DNA of 64,000 nucleotides, taken from positions 1-64,000 of the forward strand of contig NC_089319.1 in NCBI RefSeq assembly GCF_036669915.1, in the 5' to 3' direction. The notes below the pieces were generated by a model, which saw nothing but the letters and a program-made list of their open reading frames with translations, made no database searches and had not been told where the DNA came from. Positions 225 to 25,459 of the stretch are shown here, one piece after another (position 1 is the first letter of the stretch; each line of letters opens with the position of its first letter). This DNA is from Pocillopora verrucosa. Lineage: Eukaryota; Cnidaria; Anthozoa; Scleractinia; Pocilloporidae. A program made the position numbers and the translations under genes.

Positions 225-1573
225 GGATCAATATTTGTTTCTGGGCAACCGAGCTCGATATCGATTTGTCGTACTCGATATACCATTCCTGCTCGATAAG
301 CAAACGACGTTTGATAATCGAGCTCGATAACTACAAGTCGAGCTCGATTGCTAATCGAGTACGATTACTAATCGAGCTCGATAACTAATCGAGCTCGATA
401 ACTAATCGAGCTCGATTAGTAATCGAGCTCGGTTACAAGTACTAACGAGAAAGACTGGGAAAGGAGTCAAACACTGATTGAGGAGGACGATGGCAGGTAG
501 GGTGTGTTGCAAGAACCTTGGTCATTAGGTGAGTATTTCGTAAGTTTTCGTTAAGTTTCAGAGATAGCATTCAAAGGAAGGTGTAAAAGGAAGTTGGAGC
601 AAATGTATTGGAAACAGAAATTTACCCAAAGCACGAAAACCCCAGGTCAGGTGTAGTCTTTCGGGTATAGAAGGGTAAACTTAAACTTAAACTTCGCTGG
701 AATGGGACTTAATACAGACAAGAACAAACTTTTGGTAATCCTTAGTTTATTGTAAAATGTAAAATTTTTATGGTTAACTACGCAGGGGAATATTGTGTCA
801 CTTTTAGATAACTTGTGTCACTTTTAGATGAACGTTCAGTGATATATGTATACTTTTTTAAAAACAAATAAAACAACTTCTGGTTTAGAGCAAGATTTTA
901 TAAACCATTTCAACCACTGTGCAACGCAATTCCTTTCCTTCTTACCGACCTAACCAAAAGTAGCAACCTTTTAAAGCAAACTTGTATCTCGAAAACCTCA
1001 AGCTGGACGGTAATACTTCTGAGCAAAGGAATATGGGTACTAAACTGTGTTTTTCAAACTCTCATTCCTAATGACAAAACACTCAGCTGAATATTTAGGC
1101 TTGCAGCTTGGGAAAAGTACTTAATTGCTTGTAAAAATGAGGATTTTTGTCTGTCACTGGATGTTCCTTTGGCCTTAGCGAGTTGCAAAATGTTGAGTTG
1201 TCTCACTATTAAAATGTAGCCTTGGTGACATCTAGCCCATCTACAATGACAACTAACAAGGAATTCTGAGGCATCCAGAATTAGATCTTTACGGCTTATT
1301 TCCACGCTGCCAATTTCACCTTAAACTCTGTCAACAGAAAGGACTATACTTAGGAAAGAACTAAGTTAGATTTGGTTTGATTTGAAATAATTTTCTGGCT
1401 GCATTAGGGGCCATAATTATTTCACTAGTTGGTAGGGACTATCACAACATCTCGGAAATTGAATAATAGGCATATTTTGTAACATTGTAAAATATTGATG
1501 TGCATAGTTAAGCCACGACATTTATATCAGATCCCTTAACAACCTTTCTAGTTTGCTAAGAAAGTTAGAATTT
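225..1573. repeat. Left terminal inverted repeat (composite)
   Basis: Bases 225-462 and 758-1573 match the reverse complement of 25239-25459 and 24206-25037. The intervening 463-757 has no counterpart on the right. The outer block holds the GAGCTC palindrome array. The inner block includes shared landmarks such as the ATTTTTATGGTTAACTACGC stretch and the doubled CTTTTAGAT-type words near 805-830. A minus-strand open frame at 1054-1305 lies wholly inside the inner repeat and has no recognisable product. Small indels separate the two copies, so they have begun to diverge. Confidence 0.85.
248..432. repeat. Subterminal array of the palindrome ATCGAGCTCGAT (left)
   Basis: Seven or more copies of a 10-12 bp perfect palindrome centred on GAGCTC, or its variant GAGTAC, are spaced about 17 bp apart with the linker AACTA or TTAGTA. 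The reverse-complement array sits at 25239-25440. Clustered subterminal palindromes are commonly transposase-binding or hairpin-forming sites; that role is inference here. Confidence 0.8.
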
Positions 1574-1774
1574 CCCTCTCAATATATTTGAAAAGGCAAA
1601 CTTTAACATATTCTGACCCCTATATATCAGGGAAAATTATTTTTGACATGAAATTGACTGGGTGGAAATAAGAGAGACAACCTCTTAAGTATTTCAAATT
1701 TTTTTTCTTTGTAAGAGATAGTGATGATCCTTTAGTCAAGATCTTAGCAGAACATCCTTACAGCCTTATTGATA

Positions 1775-1988
1775 ACTTTTTAACTCCCAGAAGTGATTGA
1801 CATGTAACTTCTCCCTATAATAACACTTATACATCATTTAGCAAACAGGTGATGAGAATACTCAAACTTATCAGGTAGAAGTTGTCATCTTGATCAAAAC
1901 ACCAAATTCTTGTAAACTAATCCACAAGGAAATATGCAGCAGCTAGAAAGGAGAATTAACAATCAGATCTTGGGAGTCAAAGGGTTAA
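1775..1988. repeat. TTAA-type MITE copy 1
   Basis: It begins TTTTAACTCCCAG and ends GGGAGTCAAAGGGTTAA, forming inverted ends, and shares internal words (ACTTCTCCCTATAATA; CACCAAATTCT; GGAGAATTAACAATCAGATC) with the copies at 8497-8710 and 28037-28248. It is non-coding, about 210 bp, and consistent with a non-autonomous TTAA-targeting element. Confidence 0.7.
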
Positions 1989-2246
1989 GATTCTGGACTC
2001 AGTCAACATACTTACTGCCTAAATATAACAGAGGCATTGTGTAATGGATCTTAACTGAACTGAATGAACACAACTTTATAGGGAATAATTTCTTAAAAAA
2101 CTTAAGGGCTATGATTAATCGTTTTGATTTGTTTGACCCTATGAGTGACTAGCATCACATTCTCCTTACAACATCACCCCTGAATTGCACTTTCTGAATG
2201 AATGTAGACATTGTTGTACTGTAGGCTGTGTTGTGTTCATTCAACA

Positions 2247-2456
2247 TTAACCCTCTACACTCTAACATCAGTATGCACACTCTCCATACTGTTCTTACAC
2301 ATTTACACAGGTGCTGACAAGGAGAGTTTGTTTAATAATTAAGAACTTCTCCAGTTGGTGATCATTTCCTAGACTCTCATGACCTTATGTGTGATTGAAG
2401 GATGATATTGTCAGGAGAAATTAGATTCTAGTCACTCTTAGGGATTAAAGGGTTAA
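2247..2456. repeat. TTAA-type MITE copy 2 (reverse), with fragment at 2136-2235
   Basis: The copy runs from TTAACCCTCTACACTCTAAC to GGGATTAAAGGGTTAA with TTAA at both edges. A partial copy of the same family in the other orientation lies just before it (CCCTATGAGTGACTAGCATC at about 2138), so the two were inserted next to or into each other. Confidence 0.65.
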
Positions 2457-3727: not shown

Positions 3728-4410
3728 CTAAATATCTCAGTAATGTAGAGTTTTGTATCCTATTTATGTGAAACTACATGTTCAAAAATCAACAAAAAGT
3801 ATATACATGACAGTTTCCATCCCAACAATTTTCAAAGTATCTGAGTAACTGTAGAGTTTACATGATTTTACACTATTTAGATAACACTACATGTTCAAAA
3901 ATAAACAAAAGTATATGCATGACTGTTTCCATCCCAACAATTTTCAAAGTATCTGAGTAACTGTAGAGTTTACATGATTTTACACTATTTAGATAACACT
4001 ACATGTTCAAAAATAAAACAAAAGTATATGCATGACTGTTCCATCCCAACAATTTTCAAAGTATCTCAGTAATTGTAGAGTTTACATGATTTCATACTAT
4101 TTTGATATATCTACATGTTCAGAAAACAAACAAAAAGTATAGAAACATGCTTCTGCTCATATAATTATACATCCTCTGCATTTGCATGACTTTTCATCCC
4201 AACAATTTTAAAGTATCTTAGCCAAATTGTGGATTTTACATGGATTTTGTACTGTTTTCCCAACAATTTTTAAAGTATCTTAGCAATGGTGGATTTTACA
4301 TGGATTTTGTACTGTTTAGATAACACTACATGTACTATATGCTTTTGTCAGCTTAATAGTATGTGTTCTGCACTTATATGGCTGTTTCCATCACAACAAT
4401 TTTCAAAGCT
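3728..4410. repeat. 112-bp tandem repeat, about 5-6 decaying copies
   Basis: The phrase TTTTCAAAGTATCTGAGTAA recurs at about 3829, 3941 and 4053, a period of 112 bp. Each unit holds TAGAGTTTACATGATTTTAC and ACACTACATGTTCAAAAA. The outer copies (from about 3728, and 4190-4400) are more diverged. The short plus-strand frame at 4286-4471 lies in this array and is not a gene. Confidence 0.75.
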
Positions 4411-6160: not shown

Positions 6161-6169
6161 TATACCAGG

Positions 6170-8450
6170 ATATCTAAGGATACCAGGTCGCACTGGACAC
6201 TTCTCACGAAGAGCTGGTCAACAGTGGCCCGGAGGGATTACAAAGGGGAATGATCTAAGGATACCAGGTCCAACTGGACACTTCTCACGAAGAGCTGGTC
6301 AACAGGGGCCCCGGAGGGATTACAAAGGGGAATGATCTAAGGATACCAGGTCCAACTGGACACTTCTCACGAAGAGATGGTCAACAGTGGCCCTGAGGGA
6401 TTAAGAAGGGGAATGATCTAAGGATACCAGGTCCAACTGGACCTTCTCACGAAGAGCTGGTCAAAACGTGGCCCGGAGGGATTACAAAGGGGAATGATCT
6501 AAGGATACCAGGTCCAACTGGACACTTCTCACGAAGAGCTGGTCAACAGTGGCCCGGAGGGATTATGAAGGGGAATGATCTAAGGATACCAGGTCCAACT
6601 GGACACTTCTCACGAAGAGCTGGTCAACAGTGGCCCCGGAGGGATTACAAAGGGAATGATCTAAGGATACCAGGTCCAACGGACACTTTCACGAAGAGCT
6701 GGTCAACAGTGCCCTGGAGGAATACAAAGGGGAATGATCTAAGGAGACAGGTCGCACTGGACACTTCTCACGAAGAGCTGGTCAACAGTGGCCCGGAGGA
6801 TTACAAAGGGAATGATCTAAGGATACCAGGTCCAACTGGACACTTCTCACGAAGAGCTGGCCAACAGTGGCCCCGGAGGGATTACAAGGGGAATGCTCTA
6901 AGGATACAGGCCAACTGGACACTTCTCACGAAGAGTGGTCAACAGTGGCCCGGGGATTACGAAGGGGAATGATCTAAGGATACCAGGTCCAACTGGACAC
7001 TTCTCACGAAGAGCTGGTCAACAGTGGCCCGGAGGGATTACAAAGGGAATGATCTAAGGATACAGGTCCAACTGGACACTTCTCACGAAGAGCTGGTCAA
7101 CAGTGGCCCGGAGGGATTACGAAGGGGAATGATCTAAGGATACCAGGTCCAACTGGACACTTCTCACGAAGAGCTGGGCAACAGTGGCCCCGGAGGGATT
7201 ACAAAGGGGAATGATCTAAGGATACCAGGTCCAACTGGACACTTCTCACGAAGAGCTGGTCAACAGTGGCCCTGGAGGGAATACAAAGGGGAATGATCTA
7301 AGGATACCAGGTCGCACTGGACACTTCTCACGAAGAGCTGGTCAACAGTGGCCCCGGAGGGATTACAAGGGGGAATGATCTAAGGATACCAGGTCCAACT
7401 GGACACTTCTCACGAAGAGCTGGTCAACAGTGGCCCCGGAGGGATTACAAAGGGGAATGATCTAAGGATCCACGTTCGCACGGGACCCTTCTCACGATGA
7501 GCTGGTCAACAGTGGCCAGCGGAGGGATTACAATGGGGAATGATCTAAGGATACCAGGTCCAACTGGACACTTCTCACGAAGAGCTGGTCAACAGTGGCC
7601 CGGAGGGATTACGAAGGGGAATGATGTAAGGATACCAGGTCCAACTGGACACTTCTCACAAAGAGCTGGTCAACAGTGGCCCTGGAGGGATTACAAAGGG
7701 GAATTATCTAAGGATACCAGGTCGCACTGGACACTTCTCACGAAGAGCTGGTCAACAGTGGCCCCGGAGGGATTACAAGGGGGGATGATCTAAGGATACC
7801 AGGTCCAACTGGACACTTCTCACGAAGAGCTGGTCAACAGTGGCCACGGAGGGATTACAAAGAGGAATGATCTAAGGATACCAGGTCGCACTGGACACTT
7901 CTCACGAAGAGCTGGTCAACAGTGGCCCCGGAGGGATTACAAAGGGGAGTGATCTAAGGATACCAGGTCCACTGGACACTTCTCACGAAGAGCTGGTCAA
8001 CAGTGGCCCGGAGGGATTACGAAGGGGGATGAGTAAGGATACCAGGTCCAACTGGACACTTCTCACGAAGAGCTGGTCAACAGTGGCCCCGGAGGGAGTA
8101 CAAAGGGAATGATCTAAGGATCCAGGTCCAACTGGACACTTCTCACGAAGAGCGGGCCAACAGTGGCCCGGAGGGATTAAGAAGGGGAATGATCTAAGGA
8201 TACCAGGTCCAACTGGACACTTCTCACGAAGAGCTGGTCAACAGTGGCCCGGAGGATTACGAAGGGGAATGATCTAAGGATACCAGGTCCAACTGGACAC
8301 GGCTCACGAAGAGCGGGTCAACAGTGGCCCCAGAGGGATTACGAAGGGGAAGGATCTAGGATACCAGGTCACACTGGACAGGCTTAGGAAGAGCTGGTCA
8401 ACAGTGGCCATGGAGGTATTAGGAAAGGGGAATATTGTAAGGATACCAGA
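6170..8450. repeat. Minisatellite, unit about 81 bp, about 28 copies
   Basis: A unit containing AATGATCTAAGGATACCAGG, TGGACACTTCTCACGAAG and AGCTGGTCAACAGTGGCCC repeats every 80-82 bp across nearly 2.3 kb. Copies differ by single-base indels in the CCCGG and GGGG runs. The common 81-bp form is 27 codons, so it stays open in several frames (for example 6565-6972), but indels break every frame and no splice sites flank it. It lies in a probable intron of the minus-strand cargo gene. It is neither a CRISPR array nor a gene. Confidence 0.92.
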
Positions 8451-8496: not shown

Positions 8497-8710
8497 TTAA
8501 CCCTTTAACTCCCAGGAGAGTGATTAACCTCTAACTTCTCCCTATAATATTCCTTCATGATCTAGCTAACAAGTAATGAGAATACCTAAACTTATCAGGT
8601 AGATGTTGTTACGTTGATTTAAAAACACCAAATTCTCACAAGTGGTTACAAGGAAATGTGTAGCAACGAGAGGGGAGAATTCGTAATCAGATCTCTGGAG
8701 TTAAAGGGTT
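8497..8710. repeat. TTAA-type MITE copy 3
   Basis: It runs from TTAACCCTTTAACTCCCAGG to CTGGAGTTAAAGGGTT, with inverted ends of about 16 bp. The same internal words appear as in copy 1. It follows directly on the minisatellite. Confidence 0.75.
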
Positions 8711-8767
8711 CAGATCTGAAATAGAGAATTAAACCTCTATTTTTTAATTTATGACTTTTGCACATAC

Positions 8768-11700
8768 CAGTGACTGCTCCAAGTTAGTCATCTCTTCAGT
8801 GTTCTGAAAATTGTTCAAAAAAAAAAACAAATTAGACCATAGCAATGAAAGTGTCTGTCACGAAGACACATAAATAACTTATTATGCTACCCCAGCTCAC
8901 GCTGTTTTTAAGTGTTTAATAATTTTAGAGAATTTACATAAGTAAGAGTTAAATCATCTTTAGAACTAAATGTGTTTTGAATGGGAATGTGTTATATTAA
9001 GACATTGAAAAAATTAAAGTGGGTTCTGATTGAAACATACCCTCTCTAAAAGGTCCAGGACTTCGTCCCCTTGTAGATGATCAGAGTGCCTCACCACTTC
9101 CCTTCCTCGCTGTAGTGTGAAGTGGAGCGGTACTTCAACAAGCGAACCAATCCAGTCATAGACTTCCTGTTTATTGTTTTCATATAACCAAAAAAAAAAA
9201 ACATGCATCACTTACTATCACCACCATCATCATGTAGCAAATATTATATTATATTCTTACCTGGAAAAAGGCATTTTTCTCAAAAGCCCTGGAGAACTTT
9301 TTTCCATTGTTGATATGGACGCCAATGGTGTTCCACCACCATTAGTTGGTGGTGCTGTCACCCTCCCCCTGCGTTGAGCCCTTGTTTGCTGTAAAGACAA
9401 ATATTATTATGATGGATATTATTACGACAGATAAGGCACATCACAGTGCGCACAATTATAAAATAAACATATGTGGGATAAGTTATTTAAATAGAAAATC
9501 ACTGTATACAATTGACATAACTAGATTATGAATTAGTTGAGATAAATAACAAGGGTATATTTCATTCTTAATTTTTCAAACCTTACATGAACCTAAGCTT
9601 AAGAGTTGAGAGAAAGCTGGACACAGTGCACCCAATTATAAAACAAGCAGGCTTGCTTAGGTATATTTAAATGGAAAGTCACTGTATACTCTTGACATAA
9701 CATTAGATTATTAATTTTTGAGATAACTAATAGAGGACATGTCATTCTTAATTTTTCCAAACCTTATATGTATCTAAAAACTTAAGAGTAGAGAGAAAGC
9801 AGATGGTAACTTACAGAAGTTTCATCCTGATTGTTTACGGTATTGTTGGAGCTGGTTCCCAGGGAGCTGCTAGCAATGTTAGTGCTATTGCTGGACTGGA
9901 CTGTAATGCCTGTTATGAAAATTAAAGTGTTCTAATGGGTATATTAGGGAGTAAAATTAAAATAATGTGATTTTGTAAGTGTATCCTTTCAAATTGAATT
10001 CTAAATTAGGGGATATTGTGTACCTGGTACTGTAGCTCTTGACTTTGTCTTTGTTTCCGCCAGTCATCCAACTTTTTCCTGTTGAAAGAAGTACCTGTGT
10101 CAGTACCTTTCATTCCCATTTTTTAAGTTTTAATAATCATTTTAATTGTGAATACATAAATAGCTGAAAAGTTTCAATCCATACCGTTCATCCCTCATTG
10201 CGGAATATAGAGCCTGTGCTCTGCCAATGGACTCTTGAAGGCCCGCACAATCCAAGTTTGATTCTTGTAAGGTACAAGGTACAAAACATGTTGGTGTTAA
10301 AAAGACTAATAGATTGAAGCTATTCTTGTTGTAGGTATGATTATTGAAGACTTCGCAGAGATTCTTTCAGAGGAAATTTTGTATTTGTTGCACATGGAAG
10401 TTAGAAAAAAAGAAAATGTCTTTGAGACATCCACATTCCTTTTTTTGTTTGTTGTTTGTTTGTTTTTTTTGTGCATCATAAACAATCAATGGATAATCAG
10501 ACTACTAGTGAAGGAAACAGAAGAGCTGGCAAATTATTCTACCCCAGTCATGACCTTAATGACAAATGATACACTTTAAAAAATGAAAGGTGTCATTCAT
10601 ATAATCACAATATAGATTTCAAATTTCAAATTTTTCATGTTTACCCTCAAAGATTTCCACGCACTGTGGCATGTTTCTGCTATGACATGGGGCCAGAACA
10701 AATACGACAATGCCAGGGCTTTGTGAAACGCCATATTTTACTCTCACTGCAATTAAAGGTACAATTACTCTTGTGCTAATAATAACATCTGCAAAATCAT
10801 CTTGATATATCGACAATAACAACAGTGATAACTATGATAATTATAATTATTACAATAATACTCCAAAAAAATAAACTAATTAAAATTAACACTTGGGTGC
10901 ATTTGCTTTTGCATTCTGAGCTAAAGACTAGGTTTAGCTACCTTTCTGGGCTTCATGGCTGCTGTCTTTGGCAATCCAGAAGTAAATATGTGGGCTGTTT
11001 GCCACAGTGTTGAGCATGCTTGAAAAAGTAAATACAGAGAAGGTTAATAAACATCAAATACACCTGAGTTAAACAAATGTGGAGGCAGAGTAGGCAGAGA
11101 AAAATCAATGAGGAAACAAAAGCAAACACATTAGTGTACTAACCTAACCAATCTTCTCTTGCTAGCAAGAGGACAGCTGAAGGGCAAAAGGACAGCCACC
11201 ATTATACGACCATCCTCTGTTCCTTGCCATGTGAACTAAGATAACAAGAGAAACAGTTCAGTAAGATATGTGCATGAACATGAGTGTACTATTTGAATTG
11301 TTTACAGCTATTTTCCCACAGCAGGTAATCAAAGGGAGAAACGGGTTTTGTTTGACAGATTAGTTTGTAGCTCTTGGTTTTTTTTTTTTTTAACATGCAA
11401 ACTTTCTTTTTTTCTTGCCAATCAAAGGGTAGGGTATGAGCGTGATTGTGATCACATCTCATTCTATGTGGGTTTTTCCTACATACTGATAAACAAGCTA
11501 ATTACCTCTTCAAAAGAGTGGATCAGAAATGAAATGGCTGTGCTTTGCCCTCTGTCCTCTAAAATATTGATACATTGCAGCACCTCAGTGGTCCTGCTAT
11601 GAACACCTTCACCTATAAGAAATGGGTAACCATGAGGAAAGTGATTTAGTGATGTATGAATGTATTCAGTAGCATTATACACTACCTGTGCTTTCATTGC

Positions 11701-14700
11701 TCAGTTTGTCATGCACTATCTGAGGTAAACTCATCACAATCATACCTGTTATCACTCCTGATGTTGAAAAATCATCAGTGACATAGCCATCTAGAAAGAC
11801 AAAATAATAATTAAAACAGGTATACTAGTTCATTGATAAAGAATAATGTAAATGACAATTTCTAGTCTTATTAAGCTAAATGACTGGGGCATTGTGGTTG
11901 CTAGGATATGACCTCCCAAAGTACTGACACAGAGATGCATTGGCTTTGGTAAAAATGGTTCTTGTAATCTTTCTCACAACAGATGCATGGCAAAAAAGGA
12001 AGATAGCATGGTACAGGCATTAAGGAAATTGATATCCATTTAGTGAGACATCAAGGTGAGCTTACAGAGTCTAGCCTCTTCTGAGTAAACTATCACTTCT
12101 GCAAAAAAGAAAAAGAAAAGATAGGAATTACTTTGATGTAATAGGTGATAATGTCACAAATCATTATTTCCTTTACCTGCAGGATGATACAGATTCATCA
12201 CTAATTTTCATATGTAGTTGTGCCTTTATAAGTCCATTATTTATGAGTTTCTTGAGTGATGTGACTCAGATTAGTAGGTGTTTTTTTCATTAAATATACA
12301 TATGGCTAACTGGAACTGGAACAAATAGCTATGGGTTACTAAAAAAGTGCTTCCTTAATCTACAGTTTTGACTTACTTGAACATCCTTTTACTCACCATT
12401 AATGTCATCTTCTGAGTCAGATGATACAACAGATGGTCCTGCATTGTGGCCTAACCAAGGAAAAGGTGCAGACATCAAGATCAGGTCCATGTCAGAATTG
12501 TGAAAGTTCTTTAAATTAACTTAAGGTTACTTTCCACTTTCAGGGGTGTCGTTCATGAAAACACTTGTTTTTATGCTAGTTTCGTATAAATTCTTGCAAA
12601 CTTTACATCAGAAGAAAGCTTAATGACAGCAGTTTACAATAAAAATACAATTTAAACGAGTTTTCCTCTTGGGAGTGTTATAAGCCAGCTAGACGAGAAA
12701 CGATTAAGTGTTCTCTTATTGAATTTATTGAGTATCTTCATCAAGATCAATTGAAACTGTAATTGCACCAACTCACCGCCATGGTTTGAATCTGACTCAT
12801 CTGACAAGTCTGAGCTCTCATCTGTTGAGTAACATTTGATTTAAATTATAATCGCCTTATATACACCCATATACACATTTAGAACACCAATACAAAAAGT
12901 AAATTGAAAAAGTAAGACAAAACTGGGGTCATACCAGATGTTGATCCTCTTGCATTTGCAGTTGCCATTGCTGTCAGATATCTTCGTGTAGAAGCTATGA
13001 TGTCAAAAGCAATTCAGATTACACATAAAATTCAGAATTAAATTAGAACTTGTCATATTTCTTTGATTTTCATCGAGGCAGGATAAGATATACTCACTGA
13101 AAATAACTTCACTTGTCTAGTCAGTAAATTGAATTACAAATGGAAAGACAAAGTCTAAGCTGTTGGTAGTATAAACCAATACCTTTCAACTCAGACTTGT
13201 AATTAGCAATATTTTCAAATTTTTGTGAAAGATCTGAAAAGCTTAATTTCAAACAGTGACAAAATTTTTTTTTTCAGTTACCTCCATCAACTGGCAAAGG
13301 CATCAGATCCAGTGAAGTGGATGTGGAGGGTTGAGCAACTGGCAGTGTAGATATAAGGCTGCTTGAAGATGGGGACAGCAAAGTGGCCCGTGATGATGTA
13401 GATGTTAAGGTGTCAGTGGATAGAGATGTGGGTGGTAAAGTGACTGTGGATGATAGAGATGTTGAAGTGGTTGTAGATGTTGATGGTAAATTGACTGTGA
13501 ATGATAAAGATGTCGGTGGTAAAATGACTGTGGATAATGAAGATGTTGAAGTGGCTGTAGATGTTGCTGGTACAGGTGCTATGGACGACGAAGATGTTGA
13601 AGTAGCTGTTGATAATGAAAGTGCTGAAGAGGTTCCAGATGTTAGTGGCAAACTGACTGTGGACAATGAAGTGGATGTTGAAGTGGATGTAGATGATGAA
13701 GTGGAAGATGACAAAGCTGTGGTGAAAGAACAGTTTATGCATGTACATGTTGTGATCAAATGTCGTCATAAATTTGATACATTAGACTGGAAATGGGCCT
13801 ATAGAAGATTCTCACAAGTGTTTGTGGATACATTGTATATGACATATAAACCTTCAACCTTTCAATTGTTTAATGTCAAGGTATGCATTTTGATTTAGCC
13901 AGCCTCTGTTACTCGGTTAATATTTGGAAAAATGCAATAGTCATGCACATCACTATTTCTAGGGTGATGAGATAACAAATGACCAATTTCTTCTAAAAGT
14001 TCTACTTAGTATCTGGAGGTTTATTATTTTCCTATTAATTTGTGCTAGAAGTTGCAAGGCTGCAGGGAAAGTCACCTTACTAAGATAAGTAAGTAAAGTA
14101 TCAAGTAAAAAGATAAGTTTCATAGAAAACTGGTTATAAATTAGACTATGCTTATTCAAGACATGCTCCATTTGAAGAGAACAGTTTAAATAGTATGCAC
14201 TTGTAAGGTTTAGTTGATGTAAGTAACACTTTAAATGTAAACAGACCTTGACTTGGTAGAAATATAAAGATCTTTTTCCTTCTACTTCCACCAAAGTGGT
14301 CCATGAGCTGCACACCACTTTGAAGGCCAGTTGCCACTGTCCTCATTGCATGCCCTCTTGCATATGATGTAATTATTTCCAAGCTAGTGTAATAAAGTAA
14401 TGACAGAAAGGTGATTGTAGTTACCCACACTAACCTTTTTCTGTTAAATTGAATTTAACTGTGAATTTATTTCTGTAAGGTGCATGCAAATATACATTAA
14501 TTTTGAATGCACATTTGCTTTTAGTGGCATTTGCTCTAGATTGACATAGATTGTAGCAACGACAGAAATATTGCATAGTATGTCATGAAAAAAAGTATTG
14601 TAGGTTTAAATAATTCAATGTGTACTGGAACAAGGAAGGTTATTATCTTAGATGTCTAGACAGCTGTTGTTAATATAATTGGCCAACATTTCATTAAATT

Positions 14701-15539
14701 TTTTGTTGTTGTTGATTTTTTTTTGTTTTTTGTTTACTTCATCTGGATCGACCAACGATATTCGATGTTTCTTTAGATAATCAAAATTCACCTTGAAAGC
14801 GAGACTAAGAGGACAGCAACAAAGGAAATCAAGAAATATCCCTTTCCAGTTTCTCTAAACCTCGCTTTCATGGAGAATTTTGATCTATCGAAAAAAAGCT
14901 TAATCGGGTTAGCGTGAATCATGAATTTGAGCATGACCTTCACACGAACAGAAAACGACAAAAAGTAAATCCTACACAATTCCACACCTCTTTTGTAAAC
15001 TTTGCATTAAACTGATGGAACGTTAGGAAAATTTGTAACTAATTCCACACAATAATACAAATGACTGGATGAAGACAACAAAAAGACGGATATGTGCGCT
15101 GTTAGCCACTTGTCATTTATGTCCGATGCTTATCCTGTCTACTGGCGACAGCTTCTCAATGTTGCACGACATCTAAAGGAAGATTTTAGCAACCTTAGTT
15201 TTCTCTCATCCACGTTTACATCCAATCTTGCCCCTTTTCGGCATTTCGCTGCTTTTATTACGGTACTTTTCACTCTTTTCTCTGAAACCATTTTCTACCC
15301 TACGATACAGATTATGAAGGCAGCAGCACTTACCTGCTAAGGTCTTTTCCTGTAAGGGGAGGAAATGCTCTCACCAGTAAGTCTCCGATTTGGGAAGAGC
15401 TGTCGTTCTTTGTAAACGATATATCAGAAATCCGCTTGGCGGTAGCGAGCCTGCCCAGCTCAGTCTTGTTTGGCACGCTTCTGTGCCGTTTATCCAAAAA
15501 GACAACAGTTCTTTGGAAAGCGCGCTTGCTATGGTTCAT
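8768..15539 (-). CDS. Cargo gene: Ser/Thr-linker, UAS-like and UBX-like multi-exon protein
   Basis: From ATG at 15539, fifteen exons splice in phase with GT-AG sites: 15539-15334, 14383-14247, 13716-13282, 13233-13183, 12994-12935, 12821-12777, 12450-12397, 12098-12066, 11790-11746, 11612-11506, 11235-11144, 11018-10942, 10746-10645, 10263-10185 and 10078-10024, giving 526 codons. Most junctions are phase 1. In order: a basic N-terminus, a 145-residue Ser/Thr-rich linker (exon 3), acidic Ser/Asp patches, a region resembling a UAS/thioredoxin-like fold, and a Lys/Arg/Gln coiled coil (KKLDDWRKQRQSQELQYQ). Exons at about 9250-9390, 9166-9041 (VYDWIGSL...) and 8803-8768 look like a UBX beta-grasp, but the frame between 10024 and 9390 is unresolved. 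A further exon may lie at 3473-3416. The order UAS, coiled coil, UBX recalls FAF1-type p97/ubiquitin adaptors; this is inference. Confidence 0.55.
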
Positions 15540-16124
15540 CTCGTGGAGTTAAACACTTAATCTAAAATGCTTAACTCCTTGCTGCACTAATATTCCCAAG
15601 GATGACGCGAAACCACGCCGAAAATGAAACTGACCGACGTGTATACGTATTAATAAAAGGCTTTTGTTTCGTGGCACACCCATGTCACCTAGGCCTGTCG
15701 CTACGGGACATTTATATTGATAGTTAAACAATATTAGGATCGTTTGCCGCAAATGCGCTAAGCGCACCCTTTTATTCGTTTAATTGTTCTTTAATTCCAT
15801 GAAACGGGCAAGTTACCCTTTTCCAGGAAATGATGTCCACATACAAATACACACACACACTCGCACATGCAGAATGGAAACTTGATTGTTTGAACAGGGA
15901 ACTTGACCCTGGGTAACTGTCATTTCGCGGATCGATTGTTGCCAGATCAGTATCAATTGTTATTGATGAATACGTGTCAAATTGTCCAGGAAATACACAT
16001 TTCCCATTGAGGTTCACAAGGTTATAAACATCGTTTACTTATCAGTTAGTCTTGGTTCTTTCACTAAAAGCAAACTTTGCTTGGATTAGATCACTTCGCT
16101 GCTTTATTCATTGCCAGATTCGCT
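15540..16124. promoter_or_regulatory. Divergent promoter region between the two cargo genes
   Basis: The start codons of the minus-strand UBX-like gene (15539) and the plus-strand RING/TRAF gene (16125) are 585 bp apart, head to head. The interval has a CA-rich run (ACACACACAC at about 15850) and no supported ORF. A bidirectional promoter is inferred from the geometry only. Confidence 0.45.
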
Positions 16125-18700
16125 ATGTCTAATGAGCATTTTGAGTTTACTTCTCCTCCCGGAGCGCTATTCAACTGTTCTGTATGGTAAGTCTTTTTTG
16201 TTTTGTGATGATTTTTATCTTTCAGCAACTGATCGTTTTCGCTGTTACCCATCGAGAGAGAGATCTTCAGTGGAGTAGTTAAGAAATTTAAATGTCATAG
16301 GAGATAGGTTAAGGAAGAACTTTTTTAATTTTTAGGTCTCTTTGTTTTCCCAAACTTAAGATATTCGTCGAAATGTTTTGCGCAAATTTACAGAGCCTAG
16401 TATCGAGTCGCAATTGTCGTGGGTGTATCTTTGGTTCACCAACATTGCCGCTGAAAAATAGTGCAAAAAATCTGGAATTTACTTGGCTATCTAGCCCACT
16501 GATTATCTAAACTGAAACAACAAACATGTACGAAAGCACTCAAAAGGCTCAAAAGTCGACAGATAAGTCTATATTTTTCGACAACGCAGAGCTGTATGCC
16601 AAGCATCCACCATAACTCTGAACTTCAAATTGCGCTGGTTTCCAAACCCAGCTTGAAGATGCCAGGTTAAAATCTGCAATAAAGCAAGGCTTAACCTGAC
16701 ATTTAAGGAGAACGACCGACAGCATTCAGAGCATTCATAAGGCAGAAGTTCTTTTTAACTGTGGAACTATATTCGCATTTCCTGGGAAAAGAGATCATAA
16801 GCGAAATTGTAATTTTCTTTTGGCAAAAGGACGAGATGTTTAAATATTAACGCTAGGAAAATCATTAACGCACACTTGCTTACTTCTGTGATCGAGCTGT
16901 ACTAAATAGTTTATACTTCAGCAGTTGTCTTTCTGAGAGGAGAGAAATGTTGCTCATCCCTCAGGAATTTGACCAATTAGACGAAATAGTAATTTGTCAA
17001 ATAACAGATTTACGTTCTGCGTTTGTTTTGACTCTGAGTTATGAATCATTGTTCCATGGTTAAATTCCACTTTCCTTCGACAACTTTTACAATTGTAGCT
17101 GTTTGAACTGAATTCCTTGCTAGCAGGGGCCTCTTCGAAGGAATTACTTGACTTATCAATACTAGTTTTGTAAGGAAATGTACTAAACTCTCTTGATTAT
17201 CTTTTACTTTGAAGCCTATCGACAATGGTTAAGCCTGTCACTCTGGCATGTGGGCATTCGGGCTGTCGACACTGCCTCGCGACACTCATAGGCATTGAGA
17301 CTTTCCCCAAATGCCCACTCTGTAAAGCACCGATCGGAACAGATGTTACTCTCCACGTCAATGTCGCACTCGACGATATCATTGGAGACTTTAATATCAA
17401 GTGTAATAAGAGCGGCTGTCTATGGAAAGGAAAATTTCACGAGCACGAGCAGCACTTGAAAACGTGTGGCAAATTTCAAACGGCGTGTGCCAATGATGGC
17501 TGTGGAGAGATGGTGGCAAGGGAGAGGATGGCAGCACACACTGCGCAATGTGCAAAGCACAAACTCCCTTGCCAGCAATGCGGTAGAAAAATTACCAGGG
17601 AATCTTTCGAGGAGCATACTGCTTCCCTTTGCTCAAATAAGAGGGTACTGTGTCCACTAAGCTGCGGAACAAGCCTTCCACGGTAAGATATTGTCGGTTT
17701 AACTAAGAAATCAACAGTCAAATGGTTATTTAAGGCCAACAAAATATCCAAAAGTTTCACTAGCCAGCTCATCCCTGGTCCTTATTTTGATTATTTTGCA
17801 GGCTCCACTTAACACTGCACTTAAGGGAGTGCTCAGAAAGAGCGGTCCGCTGTGCGGTGACTGGCTGCACTGCCATAATAAAGCAGAAGAACATGCCACA
17901 GCACTCGACAAATGCAGCCGCCACCCACAGTGTTCTGCAGGAAGGGGAGGTCCAGCGTCTGCGGGGCCTAATGCATTTCAAGGTGAGACGCTAGAATTAT
18001 AAAAATAATGAGAAAAGATATCACATGAACATGAACTGAACATTCGGTTTCATTTCAGAGAGCCAAACCGAGATGGATTTTGGAAGAAAGAGGAGTGTTC
18101 TCCTTCCGCTGGAGGGGAGAGAAATGGAATAACGTGAAGGGGTCACACCTATTCAGCACTGAGTACAGGTGCCCGAATGGGAACAGCTGGAGGGCGCATA
18201 TACGATTTGCAGGACTTTCCTTGGAACTGGTGTCCGCAGTGACGGCAGTGGTAGTAGGAACGAGGTTAGGGACTCATCTTTGTAATTAAGGATAGATTCT
18301 CGCTCTGGAAAGCAGTACAGAGGATAAATGATCGCTGCTGATAAGCCAAAGTACTTGCATTTAGCTGGCGTATTTTACAACGACTATCAATATCGTAATT
18401 TTTCCATACAAGAGTTAGGAAATCTAAAACCATGTCTCCGAACCTAAAAACTGTTAAAAAGAAAATCAACTTTATCATGATTCACCACAAATCATTAATG
18501 ACTTTACGCTTTATGTCTACAGAATAGTATTGATGCCTGATTCCTGCGAGGAGAAGGTTTTCCCTTTCCCGGCGAAGGAGATAAAGGAGGGGGAAGTAGC
18601 AGCAAATATCCTGCGCTGTGAACTGGATCACATGGACCCAGAAGATATTATGATTGTCAAGTTTGTCTTGACATATTATCTTTTAAAAGAAGACAAGTAA
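16125..18700 (+). CDS. Cargo gene: RING, TRAF-type zinc finger, MATH-like protein
   Basis: Five exons join in frame: 16125-16186, 17215-17682, 17802-17982, 18059-18264 and 18523-18700, giving 364 aa. The first intron splits the RING. After joining, the C3HC4 ligands are C18, C21, C33, H35, C38, C41, C54 and C57. Cys/His-rich TRAF-type fingers follow (about residues 75-215). The C-terminal 130 residues contain FSFRW, LFSTEYRCPNGNSWRAHI and a hydrophobic LSLELV segment, matching the pattern of a divergent MATH/TRAF-C domain. No long coiled coil for trimerisation is visible, unlike canonical TRAFs. Known TRAFs are cytoplasmic E3 ligases in TNF/IL-1/Toll signalling; that function is inferred. All splice sites are GT-AG. 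It lies wholly inside the transposon, with an intact frame while the neighbouring transposase is broken. Confidence 0.8.
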
Positions 18701-19769
18701 TTTTCCATTTATTAGCTAGGAGAGGTATCGAGGTCGCAAATGATAACGCAAAAAATGGAAATCGTTTATGCACTAGAACAAAAGGCAATATGATAAGCAC
18801 AGAACAAACTAACCATGAAATTTAAGAAGTATTTTTGAATGGAAAACATTTTCAGTACTTTCTCATTGAGATCTTCCGCTTTTTTTGCTGTATGTAATAC
18901 CTCTCTTAGCACTTATCTGGAACATTACTTAACTAGAAAAGATCTCTTCACGCAGTTGTTAAGATAGAAGCGTGCCGGTGATGTCAAAGCGTTGTTGTAT
19001 TTTAGGGTTAGTAACGAGTGAGGAATTGAAAAAATAAAGAGTCTGGAAGCTAACTAACTTTTGAGTTTTCAGTCAACCTCCAGTTTAGTTTAGTTATTTA
19101 CATTTGAAAAATACCTCTAGGAAACAGAAGTACACTTACAGGAAAAATGTTTAAGATGAAAACGTTATGGAAGGAAAGATAGCTACGAGGACAAATATTG
19201 AAAGCGATACAAAAAATGTTTAGGTTTTTTAAGTCAAATATGTTTTTTTAAGAATTATGGGAAACACACTCGTCAATTTCCCCCTCTTCAGTATGAGTAA
19301 GCTCGATTTGTTCGTTTGCTGCGCTGTGTTTCACGTGATAATAAATGATTTGACAAATGCATTTTTCCCCGTTATCTGAACACCCTTGTCCCACTGTCGC
19401 AGACGGTCTAACCGGTTTGGTTACAGATCAAAGGCATCCCACACCAAATAAAAGCCGACACGCAGCCTCGCACCAACCCAGTCTGACACGAATTTGAATT
19501 TGTTAAAAAAAAAAAAAACATAAAAAAACAAAGTAAAACGAATAAAAACCCTGCCCTGCATAACATGAATTAAAAATAGTTTTTTCCTTAACGAAGACTA
19601 GTGGGCAGCACAAAGAAAGACGTATTGTTGTAGTTTCTCCTTTATTCCAACACGTGTCGCCTCTAGCATTGGAGAGAATATAACTACACATTCGTTAACC
19701 TCAGTTTACTTTCCTATGTAAGTGAATCATAACTGAAAAATCCTGTAAACGGAGGTTATAAAAAAAAAC

Positions 19770-20080
19770 CGCCTCAATCTATTGCGCGTTATTGTATTTT
19801 GGGGGCTATACGATAAGTGCTTATTGCGGTGAATCAATAAACAAAGACTTTGTTTCTTCATAACTCTTTTTTAATAAGGAAGGAAGGTTGGTGAGATCAA
19901 CCCATTTATCCTTATTCATACAGATGTTACATGAAATGCCTTAATTTACTGAGCGTTGTTGTATTTTTGCAGCCGTGCGGTTAGCGCCAATTGTTGTTAC
20001 TCAATAAACAAAGACTTTGTTTCCTCACATCTTGTTGTTAATTAAGAAAAAAATGATCGGTGAGTTCAACAGATTTGATC
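19770..20080 (+). repeat. Imperfect tandem duplication, about 165 bp apart
   Basis: Both copies contain GTTGTATTTT or TTATTGTATTTT followed by TCAATAAACAAAGACTTTGT and TTAATAAGGA or TTAATTAAGA. The copies have diverged by indels. Confidence 0.5.
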
Positions 20081-20263
20081 GGGTAAATTTTCTACCATTG
20101 GAAATACAAAAAGCTAGCCTAGCACACGCAGATAATATTTACACCAGATACAAATATATCTTCTATCCTACATGGGAGTATATAACAACCCAATGTTTTT
20201 ATGAATAAACCTAAATTGTTAGTAATCGTCGTTATAAATGTAATTACAAACTGTTCTGTTTCT

Positions 20264-20431
20264 GGTAATATCAACTAAGTTGAAATTATAAATTGGCCAC
20301 CGTAAAGAGTTCAAAAGCTGACGTTTCGAGCGTTAGCCCTTCATTAGTCTGATGAAGAGCTAAGGCTCGAAACGTCAGCTTTTGAACTTTTTAGGTGGCC
20401 AATTTACAATTTCAACTTAGTTGATATTATC
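20264..20431. repeat. 168-bp near-perfect inverted repeat carrying hammerhead motifs
   Basis: The arms 20264-20347 and 20349-20431 are reverse complements over about 83 bp with a few mismatches, separated by a single base. The outer edges carry ATATCAACTAAGTTGAAAT. The arms meet at the CTGATGA word, so the two ribozyme-like cores face each other. The structure matches a foldback repeat derived from a retroelement tail. Confidence 0.8.
20349..20380 (+). ncRNA. Hammerhead-type ribozyme core motif
   Basis: CTGATGA at 20349-20355 is followed by a short stem (GAGC/GCTC) and GAAAC at 20369-20373, the conserved uridine-turn and GAAA elements of a hammerhead. The facing arm has the same core with CTAATGA, a change at a normally invariant base. 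Hammerheads of this kind are known from Penelope-like retroelements. Whether helices I and III form a cleavable fold was not computed. Confidence 0.5.
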
Positions 20432-22054
20432 AAATCACCTTGTTACCCCCACTGACGCAGCACCAGAGTTTCTTTAGAAACTTACCCCCTTTGTTTCTGG
20501 TCTGTTATGACGACGGCAAACATACTTCTCCATTATAACAAAGGATGAAAAAAAAATCACACTTACCTTACAAAAGGCACTGATGAGGAAGTCGCAAGTT
20601 TAAACAATAGGCTGTTTTACCTTGCGCTTAGCAATGATTTAATTGCTTTTGTTAACGATGAGGTCACCCTAAGGGGTTTTATTCATTTGTTCTAAACAAC
20701 CGTGTGAAAAAAAGATACTTCGCATAAGTGTGATGTAGTCAATTACAAAATAAGAAACTCACAAAATCATCGAAATTTAGACCCGTTTCTCGCTATTGCT
20801 AGCTGACTAGACTCCAACAAGGAGAAGAAAATAATAAGTCCTTACGTCAGTATGCAGCTTTAGAGCAAGGCCTCACGATAAAGTTTTAAACGGTAGTGGT
20901 CAAAAACGTTAATAGTAAATATATTTTGGTAACCACCGTAAGGGAAAAAAACCTAACCGTTAGCCGTAAAGTGGCCACAATTTTATCCTTTAAACTTACC
21001 AGCCATCACCCCATTGGAACCCTCCACTATTTGGTACATCTTTTTATTACTGTTGTTCATTTATTATTTCTTTTTGCAAGTTCAACCTCAATCAACGCCG
21101 GTAGGCCGGTTGCCGAACACTGTTGCAACGGCACGAAGTTAACGCGTCATCGTTTAAACTCCATAAAAATCCAACCCACACTTAAAATGGGACTAATTCG
21201 GTAATCACCTTGGCCTATTGAAGAGATTAAAATGAAGGCGTTATCCAAAGATGGCAAGCTTTAAATTGTGAACGAAGGTATCGTTTTTTTACCGCACGAG
21301 ATAGTAAAGTAATTATTTTGTGCAATTCCTCTCCGCTTAAAGAACTGAGTATATGCCCAAAATTCGCATTTCCATTTCAATTATAATGAATTATTTTTAG
21401 TTTGTGCGCACAAATATTGCAACTTCTCCTTTTTAGTGGGCACGGTCAATTTTAAATAAACGTCATCTTTTTTTTTTTTTTTTAACGCGCGGGGCTGACA
21501 ACAATGTATTTCGTATTTAATTGAAGAACAACAACGGGGAAAAGGCGCTTTTCGGAGATAACCTATAAGGGAACTTGCTATCGATTACTAGCTTTAGTCC
21601 CTCTTTCATCGGGCGTGTGCATTGGCACAAACGTCCTTTAATCTATCTCCTTTTCAACTTATATAGTAACAACTTTTACATGCGTCTGCATGCCGCTACA
21701 TAAAACTGTCATATAAGTTGCAAGTGTTCATAGCACAATTTGGATTTTTACTTGACTGCTACGTGATAAATACACCGACTTAAGAAAAAAAAACCTCAAA
21801 ACAACACTAAAAGTACCGTGGGTTACAATAATAATTATCGACGTACTTAAGGTGTTTTAGAACGCACTTTTCCCATTCGATGTAGGAGACCTCTTTGATG
21901 TTAATTCAAAACTTCTAGAAGCAAGAGCATCCACCATAAAAGTCGCATCTATACGCGTCTATATATTCAGTGGAGAAGAATGCTTAAACCGGCCATTTTA
22001 ATTTGTTCAAAAACGATAAAGGGTCTTTCCTTAACAATACTGTACAGGCGCTGC

Positions 22055-23294
22055 TGAGGATGCATAAAAAGAAGAAGTGTGAGATCAAACAGTTTTTTCG
22101 AGGAGTTCCCCAGAGTGCCACTTGGTAAACTCCTGCAGAAGGTTTATTTCTTCTCTGCTGAGGACTCCCAGCGACGAATTTCCAGGTACCTGGATTTAAA
22201 TACAAGCTTGATAAGAAAAATTAGTAGGCGCTTACAGGATGGCTGCCCAAGAAACCTTCAGGACAGGCCAATCACGCCCTTTGGACTGGTGTAAGATGCG
22301 ACGAGAGTAAATTCAACAACTAATCAAAGCTAAAAATCACTATTTTTTCAAGTATATACTAACACGGGAAATAGCGTCGTAGATCGCCTGCACTCGGCCT
22401 GCACTCAAACTTTGAACATCCTTTGCTAATCGCCTCCGAGCAACTTGTCCACTATTGGCACACAAAAATTATGGCAACCATTTATAGCAGGAATAAATGA
22501 GTTTAAAAAAATCACCTTTTTGTGCCATATTATATTACTGATATAGTATATACTAGGCAAATGTTCACCTCCAATCATTTCAATATTTTTGAGATATAAA
22601 TATTTTCATAACCTTACTGTTCCTTAATTTTCTGGAACATGTGGTTCGCAAGCCGAAGTAGGTGGGAATGTGACAACAAAAAGCACTCAGGGCGCTTTAA
22701 TATCAAAATTATTTCATACAGGTGAATGATAATTACACATAGCTGGGATAAAGCCTAAAGCAAAATATTAATGGGACAAAAATCATCCATCTGAAATATA
22801 TATATTTTTTCATTATTTCAGAACAACTGGGGAAGACGTGCACAAAGGTACACATGGGTTTTTGGGATTGTTACGACGCAACATTTACCTGCAAAAAGCT
22901 ACTTCGATGAAGTGGAAAGACGAGATATGGCCACCCTCCATCCCATCATTTCAAGGTGTGTTCTCCCTGGAACCGAAGTGCACTCGGATGACTTGGCCTC
23001 CTACCGGCAGACGGACCAAAGAATTAACAACATAAGTGCACATCAAATGATTGTCCACCGACTCAACTTCGTTGACCCAGTCACTATGGGGTTGACACCC
23101 AAGAAATCGAATCCTGCTGGAACAGTTTAAAATTGGGCCAGAAAACACGCCGGAGGATAAGGAGGGAAGACTTGCAGTCCTACCTCGACGAGCAAATGTG
23201 GCGTCGGTGGAGAGCGGGAACCGCTAAGCAATCCATGCAGAACTTTTTGGCCGTTGTAGCCAATCCATATCTAGTTGATAATCCGGTTTTGTAA
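22055..23294 (+). pseudogene. Decayed Merlin (IS1016/ISXO2-like) DDE transposase
   Basis: Recognisable parts occur in order. SVRSNSFFEEF with a helical region (22076-22270) matches the Merlin N-terminal segment. CDESKF (Asp codon at 22300) is the first catalytic Asp region. WVFG is in the stretch beginning about 22822, SDD (22984-22992) is the second Asp, HRLNFVDP precedes a frame change, and QEIESCW (Glu codon at 23109) is the third acid, with a clean C-terminus ending TAA at 23292-23294. Damage: an in-frame TGA at 22055, a frame change between the helical region and CDESKF, a stop soon after it, about 500 bp of non-coding sequence with an acceptor-like TTTCAG at 22814-22820, and another frame change near 23085. 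Merlin enzymes cut and paste DNA and duplicate 8-9 bp, as seen at the element's ends. This copy cannot be functional as read. Confidence 0.8.
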
Positions 23295-24102
23295 ATACGC
23301 TACGGTTTTTACTTTCAGTTTTGGGAGAGACAGGTAAATAAACAATTAAGCTCTGTCCATGACTATGTTGAATAGGTTTTACATAGGTTAGGTCTACTGA
23401 CCACACTGGTCCAGAAAGATTTTCTAACGAAACGACGTATTTTTAAAATATGCGATTTCAACTTGAATTTTAACTCATTATGAAAACCGACCTTTTCGAA
23501 TTCCCCGATGTTGATTTTTCTTGTAACACTTTTTTTGACGGGATGATAAGGGCTTTACTATACACATCATCTAGCTGCATTTCTTTTTTTTTGCCGTAGA
23601 TGACAATTATGATAATGCAAAAAAAAAAAAAAGAAAAAAGAAAAAAACCAGTTTATTCATTTTCATAGATAGAGGCAAAGCTCTTTTTGGATTGTGAGAG
23701 AAAAATAACGTTTTTCAAAGCACCTGCGAAAGTGTGGTCGGGGCTTTGATCTTGGAAGTATTTAACGCACAACAATCACAGTGTTCAAAAATAAAACTTG
23801 ATTGAAAAGTTCAAAATATTGGTGATTCAGTCGTAATCCTTTCTTAGGGAGAAAAATAGTAACATTTTAAAACTAGAGTGCGATACGAATGTTGTTGTGT
23901 TGATAGATGACGCTGTTATTAGTCAGAAAAAAGGTGCGACGATATTCAGTTTTTTTTTACCGCTTCATATGCGTGTCTTTTCCTTTCTTTAATTACCCTC
24001 TAAAAAGTTACAGTAAAAGTTCAAAGTAATATCTAAATGCAAGTTGTCGTAGAGAAAGCCGGAACGCACACGAGCGAAAAAAAGGGTGTCCTGATCTTAG
24101 GG
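23295..24102. other. Non-coding stretch before the right inverted repeat
   Basis: No gene is seen. There is a purine run at about 23615-23650 and otherwise unremarkable AT-rich sequence. Confidence 0.5.
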
Positions 24103-24208
24103 AAGAGAATCGCTTAAACAAAAACGGCAGCGTGGGAAAATTTATTTTCAATATTCTCCCCACTTACTTCATATCCTCTCTATGAATCCTGTCTCTGAAT
24201 CTCCTAAA
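24103..24208 (+). repeat. 106-bp direct repeat, copy A
   Basis: Copy A (AAGAGAATCGCTTAAACAAA to CTGAATCTCCTAAA) is repeated almost exactly at 25038-25143. The two copies bracket the inner inverted-repeat block of the right end. The left end of the element has no copy. Confidence 0.9.
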
Positions 24209-25459
24209 TTCTAACTTTCTTAGCAAACTAGAAAGGTTGTTAAGGGATCTGATATAAATGTCGTGGCTTAACTATGCAAATCAAATATTTTACAATGTTA
24301 CAAAATATGCATATTATTCAATTTCCGAGAAGTTGTGATAGTCCCTACCAACTGGTGAAATAATTATGGCCCCTAAAGCAGCCAGAAAATTATTTCAAAT
24401 CAAACCAAATCTAACTTAGTTCTTTCCTAAGTATAGTCTTTCTGTTGACAGAGTTTAAGGTGAAATTGGCAGGGTGGAAATAAGAGAGATGGCCTCTTAA
24501 GCCGTAAAGATCTAATTCTGGATGCCTCAGAATTCCTTGTTAGTTGTCAGTGTAGATGGGCTAGATGTCACCAAGGCTACATTTTAATAGTGAGACAACT
24601 CAACATTTTGCAACTCGCTAAGGCCAAAGGAACATTCAGTGACAGACAAAAATCCTCATGTTTACAAGCAATTAAGTACTTTTCCCAAGCTGCAAGCCTA
24701 AATATTCAGCTGAGTGTTTTGTCATTAGGAATGAGAGTTTGAAAAACACAGTTTAGTACCCATATTACTTTGCTAAGAAGTATTACCTCCAGCTCGAGGT
24801 TTTCGAGATACAAGTTTGCTTTAAAAGGTTGCTACTTTTGGTTAGTTCGGTAAGAAGGAAAGGAATTGCGTTGCACAGTGGTTGAATGGTTTATAAAATC
24901 TTGCTCTAAACCAGAAGTTGTTTTATTTGTTTTTAAAAAAGTATACATATATCACTGAACGTTCATCTAAAAGTGACACAAGTTTATCTAAAAGTGACAC
25001 AAGTATTCCCCTGCGTAGTTAACCATAAAAATTTTACAAGAGAATCGCTTAAACAAAAACGGCAGCGTGGGAAAATTTATTTTCAATATTCTCCCCACTT
25101 ACTTCATATCCTCTCTATGAATCCTGTCTCTGAATCTCCTAAAAAACTTATGAAGCATTTCGCCGTCGGTATCGAGGTTTTTTTGCACACTCCATCGCAC
25201 TCCATAAGGTTGGACTCTCCACCAGTCTTTCTCGTCAGTACTGTAACCGAGCTCGATAAACGAATTTTGTCGAGCTCGATAACTAATCGAGCTCGATTAG
25301 TAATCGAGCTCGATTAGTAATCGTACTCGATTAGCGATCGAGCTCGACTTGTAGTTATCGAGCTCGATTATCAAACGTCGTTTGCTTATCGAGCAGGAAT
25401 GGTAATCGAGTACGACAAATCGATATCGAGCTCGGTTGCCCAGAAACAAATATTGATCC
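24206..25459. repeat. Right terminal inverted repeat (composite)
   Basis: The inner block 24206-25037 and outer block 25239-25459 are reverse complements of the left blocks 758-1573 and 225-462. Between them lie copy B of the 106-bp direct repeat (25038-25143) and about 95 unique bases. Relative to the left arm there is also a short insertion near 24472-24500 that resembles left-arm sequence near 1660-1690. Confidence 0.85.
25239..25440. repeat. Subterminal palindrome array (right)
   Basis: This is the mirror image of the left array: repeated ATCGAGCTCGAT with TTAGTA linkers, including the GAGTAC variant and the TCAAACGTCGTTTGC word also present at the left end. Confidence 0.8.

What the first reader, a model, noticed from the sequence alone, without database searches (positions are those of the whole stretch)
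225..25459. A 25-kb Merlin-like transposon carrying spliced host-type cargo genes
Seen: mirror-image termini (GGATCAATATTTG...), a perfect 8-bp duplication on both sides, and an embedded Merlin-type DDE transposase relic. Known: Merlin/IS1016-like elements duplicate 8-9 bp, start with GG and are usually a few kb. Inference: this is a giant, gene-carrying member of a superfamily not noted for cargo, comparable in concept to Starships or Teratorn but of different descent.
Basis: partly seen in the sequence, partly recalled or inferred. Interest (0 to 1): 0.92.

Follow-up and report, generated by a model that had tools for sequence, protein, structure and literature searches.

The report
Giant Merlin transposons carrying ubiquitin-system genes
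A 25,000-letter jumping DNA element, one of several related families in this genome, carries two multi-exon genes that look like parts of the cell's ubiquitin machinery, although transposons of its type are usually described as small.

Summary
Window 225-25459 has perfect 55-bp end repeats, interrupted inverted arms reaching about 1.35 kb, and a perfect 8-bp duplication, GATTTAAC. The own genome holds more copies. Six of six family-A insertions scored (three of them full 25-kb copies), one family-C and one short family-B insertion have perfect, different 8-bp duplications. One 25-kb copy sits in another copy's end repeat, and the window supplies the related empty site.

Families A (window), B (28.5 kb) and C (22.9 kb) share end sequence, a spliced UBX-domain gene, a spliced TRAF-like gene, a minisatellite and a Merlin transposase: open frame in B, shared relic in A, one exon found in C. 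So the cargo pair predates the split. Family A spread with a dead transposase, so something acted in trans (inferred).

Of 48 ends read, 15 abut a relative's end repeat; some may be copies of one event.

Merlin membership is well supported but no tree was made. Host origin and function of the cargo, and other species, were not tested. The papers listed showed no giant Merlin; Repbase and preprints were not searched.

The parts
217..224 (.). left 8-bp target duplication GATTTAAC
225..436 (+). left terminal inverted repeat, starts GGATCAATATTTG, with GAGCTCGAT subterminal repeats (17-bp tandem period)
758..1573 (+). left inner inverted arm, about 98% identical to 24206-25038
6172..8449 (.). 82-bp minisatellite array, 28 units, just 3' of the UBX gene; arrays also lie there in families B (53 bp) and C (60 bp)
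9037..15539 (-). UBX-domain gene, 17 exons: 15539-15334, 14383-14247, 13716-13282, 12994-12935, 12821-12777, 12450-12397, 12098-12066, 11790-11746, 11612-11506, 11235-11144, 11018-10942, 10746-10645, 10263-10185, 10078-10024, 9909-9815, 9388-9261, 9166-9037 (end of the last exon and the 3' end of the gene uncertain). 627-aa continuous frame in copies C4:6962934 and C14:15757848; the window copy has 1-nt deletions in exons 15 and 16
17225..18700 (+). TRAF-like gene, 4 exons read (17225-17682, 17802-17982, 18059-18264, 18523-18700), 340 aa, RING-like and zf-TRAF; a first exon upstream is likely missing from the model
21965..23291 (+). Merlin transposase relic (PF12762), shared in-frame stop and frame changes, with an insertion-like stretch of about 0.5 kb in it
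24103..24208 (+). 106-bp segment repeated exactly at 25038-25143, either side of the right inner arm
24206..25038 (-). right inner inverted arm; absent from the right end in copies C14:15757848 and C6:9285351
25243..25459 (-). right terminal inverted repeat
25460..25467 (.). right 8-bp target duplication GATTTAAC

Best explanation
This is a non-autonomous member of a lineage of giant (23-28 kb) Merlin-superfamily cut-and-paste transposons. A DDE transposase of the ISXO2/IS1595 type binds the GG...TCTGGGCAACCGAGCTCGA termini, excises the whole unit and inserts it with 8-bp staggered cuts. The lineage carries two spliced ubiquitin-system-like genes, UBX and TRAF-like, as standing cargo. Family A lost its own transposase before its present copies spread, so it was moved in trans by a relative with similar termini; family B still has an open transposase frame. 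Shown: units, duplications, related empty site, shared cargo, shared relic. Inferred: that the Merlin enzyme is the mover, which relative supplies it, and that the cargo serves the element.
For: Perfect, different 8-bp duplications in 6 of 6 scored family-A insertions and 1 of 1 family-C, and in one 8,156-bp family-B insertion, C12:11923131-11931286, GTGATTTT. A related empty site for the 25,009-bp copy at window 325-378. 5'-GG termini with 8-bp duplications match the published Merlin definition (PMC8101967, passages). PF12762 in A. Open 3-exon, 308-aa transposase frame in B, PF12762 E 5.1e-16, triad D143-D208-E248. Its zinc-ribbon exon in C. The cargo pair shared by A, B and C: UBX exons 44-65%, TRAF 36-46% in the better exon matches (30% in one), protein identity. 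TRAF-gene variation between five A copies 8 nonsynonymous, 9 synonymous, pN/pS 0.25. 16 of 60 non-A Merlin loci lie within 50 kb of a TRAF locus (0.77 expected) against 1 of 93 piggyBac loci. First 34 terminal bases: A and C 34 of 34, A and B 28 of 34.
Against: No single copy was found with intact A-type termini and an open transposase. The B copy with the open frame has no intact 8-bp duplication; the B copy with a perfect duplication is a short one whose interior I did not read. A second B copy, on C13, has an open DDE exon but a frame break in the exon before it. Transposase position and gene order differ between A and B. The Merlin/TRAF proximity partly reflects nesting: at C13:7620206 the two may belong to different elements, and 44 of 60 Merlin loci have no TRAF locus within 50 kb. 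pN/pS rests on 17 changes in one gene and 6 in the other. Only 19 open stretches of the window element, plus spliced models, were scanned against Pfam, and of B only the transposase model, so another transposase made of short exons is not excluded.
Confidence: 0.88

Rival explanations
1. The mobile unit belongs to another superfamily with 8-bp duplications (hAT, P, Zisupton-like; recalled), and the Merlin gene is a passenger inserted in it.
For: The transposase is dead in all 7 family-A copies examined, yet A spread. Its position differs between A and B.
Against: Merlin sequence is in all three families, with the N-terminal exon head-to-head beside the UBX gene in both B and C. Open frame in B. 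Termini start GG as in Merlin. No other transposase domain in the 19 stretches and models scanned for A.
Confidence: 0.08
2. A composite unit: two small Merlin elements flank a host segment, and the outer ends moved the whole once.
For: Long terminal arms; bacterial composite transposons work so (named in the passages of PMC6431247).
Against: No exact or 1-mismatch inner GGATCAATATTTG terminus inside the window element. The same genes recur between related ends in three diverged families. 25-kb copies recur at different sites.
Confidence: 0.03
3. Segmental duplication or an assembly artefact gives the copies.
For: Some copies lie at contig ends (C1, C7, C8, C32).
Against: Copies stop at the same base, flanks differ, and 8 of 8 scored insertions (6 A, 1 C, 1 B) have perfect duplications.
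Confidence: 0.01

Closest known systems
Merlin superfamily / IS1016-IS1595 transposons (PMC8101967, passages)
   Same: 5'-GG termini, 8-bp duplication, DDE_Tnp_IS1595 transposase, zinc-ribbon N-terminus in B
   Different: 22.9-28.5 kb units with two spliced cargo genes; terminal arms of about 1.3 kb in B (A: 217 bp plus an inner arm) against the published 24-462 bp; a three-exon transposase
Pack-MULEs and other gene-capturing DNA transposons (PMC6431247, passages)
   Same: TIR-bounded, transposase in trans, carries host-like genes
   Different: that review gives at most 7 kb and gene fragments for Pack-MULEs; here complete-looking multi-exon genes are kept across families
Starships and Teratorn (PMC6431247 passages; other papers from search listings)
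   Same: giant eukaryotic units that carry genes
   Different: Starships are classed by a tyrosine recombinase (listing); Teratorn is a fusion of a piggyBac-like transposon (listing) with a herpesvirus (recalled); neither is Merlin
Polintons/Mavericks (recalled)
   Same: size range; a gene set of that kind lies in this window at about 50-63 kb
   Different: carry polymerase B and a retroviral-type integrase; no such domain in the stretches of 225-25459 that were scanned

Membership tests
Merlin superfamily | 8-9 bp target duplication | tested here: met
   6 of 6 scored A insertions and 1 of 1 C, one B insertion on C12; not intact at the B insertion on C6
Merlin superfamily | terminal inverted repeats starting 5'-GG | tested here: met
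   A, B, C termini
Merlin superfamily | TIR length 24-462 bp as published | tested here: not met
   a descriptive range rather than a criterion: A 217 bp plus inner arm to about 1.35 kb; B about 1.3 kb
Merlin superfamily | DDE_Tnp_IS1595 transposase with D, D, E triad | tested here: met
   open frame in B; a relic in the window's family A; only the N-terminal exon found in C
Merlin superfamily | transposase clusters with Merlin in a tree | not tested
Merlin superfamily | transposase acts on these termini | not testable with these tools
   needs an assay
Polinton/Maverick | polymerase B and retroviral-type integrase inside the termini (recalled) | tested here: not met
   no such domain in the 19 stretches and models scanned
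Starship | tyrosine recombinase captain gene | tested here: not met
   none in the stretches scanned; TIR and 8-bp duplication present instead

The most novel reading that the evidence does not exclude
A lineage of cut-and-paste DNA transposons has made a UBX gene, a TRAF-like gene and a minisatellite part of its standing genome, perhaps to act on the host ubiquitin system in its own favour, and it targets its relatives' termini, so that elements nest like dolls and may grow or trade cargo that way.
Probability: 0.3. Interest if true: 0.9.

Novelty: new variant of a known kind. Interest (0 to 1): 0.8.

Why it matters
[quoted passage not shown] Here a DDE transposon lineage moves 23-25 kb units with multi-exon genes, repeatedly and recently: the window copy and C4:6962934 differ by 0.25% in non-coding sequence. 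The genes persist across families whose DNA aligns only in patches. That makes testable whether cut-and-paste elements keep genes for their own benefit, and it offers a possible mobile carrier for intact eukaryotic genes.

Tried and rejected
Family A as an autonomous element: rejected, since 7 of 7 copies share the same in-frame TGA. Six of 6 copies whose last exon was extracted share the later frame change; C4:6962934 was not covered there by that extraction.

Arrays as coding sequence: unit lengths of 82 and 53 bp are not multiples of three; C's 60 bp is.

Element D at C13:7612001-7632000: open DDE exon, but no spanning inverted repeat in the 20 kb taken, and the TRAF piece there is 78% identical to family A DNA; inconclusive.

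UBX-gene search of the whole genome: not completed, so UBX co-location is known only for A, B and C. B-transposase search of the whole genome: not completed (91, 93).

Viral contigs: no match to the peptide patterns of the B transposase; records of this or a very near genome may be left out there.

Paper searches: (7 papers, 6 listed; 47, 25 listed; 0; 10 listed; 4 listed) answered; others failed. No listed title or abstract start describes a giant Merlin. PMC8101967 has 0 occurrences of cargo, passenger or accessory; PMC6431247 has 0 of Merlin. Repbase and preprints were not searched.

Mended on re-check: the count of ends, the same-site caveat, the B duplication on C12 and the end of the TRAF gene. 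The novel-case odds went from 0.35 to 0.3, because several nested ends share one exact site and may be one event.

Full report
WHAT IS THERE. Window 225-25459 is bounded by inverted ends that begin GGATCAATATTTG; the outer 55 bp are identical, the next 134 bp 96%, and a second arm (758-1573 and 24206-25038) about 98%. GATTTAAC flanks both sides. In the 64 kb the pattern GGATCAATATTTG occurs exactly only at these two ends.

COPIES. The own genome (G000, 353 Mb, 52 contigs, unnamed; the window is C8:1-64000) gave 74 matches to the left block and 77 to the right block. I read whole the longer pairs on C14, C4 and C6. Family A insertions with both outer termini intact: window 25,235 bp GATTTAAC; C14:15757848 25,009 bp GAGTACGA; C4:6962934 24,625 bp CAATTTTC; C6:3801558 19,413 bp CAATTCTC; C4:5810184 11,285 bp AAACCTTT; C6:9285351 44,047 bp AAAAGTTG (15.4 kb of A, then a nested family-B element). 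Six of six match. Two further pairs were not scored: C14:19909866-19939625 (damaged right end, 6-kb insertion) and C3:9073923-9074275 (one terminus lacks its first 4 bases). Further A pieces lie on C1, C3, C4, C5, C7 and C32, some cut by contig ends. The shorter copies are internal deletions. Single-base differences to the window in non-coding sequence of 8600-24100, five copies: 0.25% (C4:6962934) to 1.19% (C14:19909866).

EMPTY SITE. The C14:15757848 copy sits in the end repeat of another A element. Its two flanks, joined with one GAGTACGA, occur exactly in the window's uninterrupted repeat at 325-378. This is a related empty site, not an allele.

OTHER FAMILIES. Nested in the C6 copy is family B, 28,549 bp, ends GGACCACATTTAG..., terminal arms 92% over about 1.3 kb. 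Its right junction lacks an intact 8-bp duplication; a small deletion between short repeats would explain that (inference), and the same target site read at a B end on C13 keeps the bases missing there. A shorter B insertion, C12:11923131-11931286, 8,156 bp, has GTGATTTT on both sides (read by eye from the printed flanks; interior not read). Family C, C5:17484153-17507017, 22,865 bp, has GTACTGGT on both sides. A, B and C share TCTGGGCAACCGAGCTCGA at bases 16-34; A and C share all of the first 34.

GENES. (1) UBX gene, minus strand in the window: 16 exons fit in frame at first reading, and the 16 introns of the 17-exon model read GT-AG. The join to the 17th exon was out of phase in the window, and the sister copies explain it: two 1-nt deletions are private to the window copy, and C4:6962934 and C14:15757848 read 627 aa without a stop. 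C14:19909866 has further damage. The C-terminal 88 aa match UBX, PF00789, 21.3 bits against a cut-off of 21; a longer piece scored 19.5, below it, and the window-copy model showed no UBX match. (2) TRAF-like gene, 340 aa, zf-TRAF E 1.2e-18, best match among solved structures by sequence TRAF5, E 7.4e-10. No stop in the window, C14:15757848, C4:6962934, C6:3801558 and C6:9285351 copies; interrupted by an insertion in C14:19909866; deleted in C4:5810184. The first RING cysteines are not in the model, so an upstream exon is likely. (3) Merlin transposase. In A it is broken alike in the copies read. In B on C6 three exons give 308 aa with PF12762 E 5.1e-16 and D143, D208, E248. Two further B pieces (C13, C4) have an open DDE exon, but the C13 copy has a frame break in the exon before it. 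In C only the zinc-ribbon exon was found, with a stop.

CONSERVED CARGO. Between A and B: TRAF 45% over 157 aa, UBX exons 44-65%, transposase 63-68%, while DNA aligns only in patches. Between A and C: UBX 61-65%, TRAF 36% and 30% in two pieces. The minisatellite lies just 3' of the UBX gene in all three (82, 53 and 60 bp units); shared cores noted by eye. The UBX and transposase genes stand head to head in B and C; TRAF changes place and direction. pN/pS between A copies: TRAF 8 nonsynonymous and 9 synonymous, 0.25 (five copies); UBX first 14 exons 3 and 3, 0.33 (three copies). These counts are small.

GENOME-WIDE. 69 PF12762 matches and 153 TRAF matches (list cut, the listed ones gave 60 loci). 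Of 60 Merlin loci outside family A, 16 lie within 50 kb of a TRAF locus against 0.77 expected; one more lies at 50.7 kb and the next at 285 kb. Of 93 piggyBac loci, 1 lies within 50 kb (the Fisher test printed there used 2 rather than 1, so it errs on the cautious side). The other 44 Merlin loci have no listed TRAF gene within 50 kb, so most Merlin here may be of the ordinary kind. Some of the proximity is nesting.

NESTING. Of 48 element ends in the loci I fetched (38, 10 more; not a random sample), 15 abut the end repeat of another element by script (11 and 4), and one more, C6:11701422, follows the first 13 bases of an A terminus by eye. They are 14 places by script, since one element gives two ends. 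Four of the ends use exactly the same 8-bp site of the A repeat (bases 80-87), three of them B in A, so these may descend from one nested insertion that was copied along with A. At C13 the two ends of one B piece have different flanks, so rearrangement also happens. The chance figure printed assumed independence and should not be used. Target preference by the transposase is the simplest reading; recombination between ends is another.

END EXCHANGE. Right ends come in three forms: without the inner arm (C14:15757848, C6:9285351), with it between two 106-bp repeats (window, C4:6962934), and left-type (C4:5810184, C6:3801558). Gap repair with template switching after excision would give this (inference).

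MECHANISM AND VERDICT. Best reading: Merlin-type cut-and-paste, in trans for family A, of giant units with stable cargo. What the cargo does is unknown; ubiquitin-pathway interference for the element's benefit is a guess. Whether it came from this host or long ago from another is not tested. Literature: PMC8101967 (12 of 23 passages found) defines Merlin; PMC6431247 (12 of 25 passages found) gives the size expectation; other papers were seen in listings only.

Noticed in passing
window 49998-63276: Polinton/Maverick-like gene set: integrase with chromodomain (51760-52863, PF00665 E 2.9e-15), weak A32/FtsK-like ATPase below the cut-offs (55312-56010), and a 1045-aa minus-strand ORF at 60142-63276 that may be the polymerase (not scanned). 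Observed only.
   Followed up: partly
window 48262-49203: Open frame of a rhodopsin-type GPCR (PF00001 E 2.2e-33) between the two mobile elements.
   Followed up: no
window 20263-20432: Small palindromic repeat with relatives scattered in family B (nest 8170-8426, 12572-12674, 14669-14771), perhaps a MITE living in these giant elements.
   Followed up: no
G000 C7:5267-128450, C1:36577738-36597280, C8:1-25467: Several family A and C pieces lie near contig ends; either subtelomeric preference or assembly breaks at repeats.
   Followed up: no
L050/L051, C13:7612001-7632000: Open DDE exon close to the Merlin profile (PF12762 82.8 bits) 7.8 kb from a decayed TRAF-like gene that is 78% identical to family A DNA.
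   Followed up: partly
L055, C6:11701422: A family-B end inserted 13 bases inside an A terminus, with a TRAF match 3.9 kb further in: likely another B copy, not read.
   Followed up: no
window about 27053-27430: A run of unknown bases lies in this ORF just right of the element; the window has 100 N in all.
   Followed up: no
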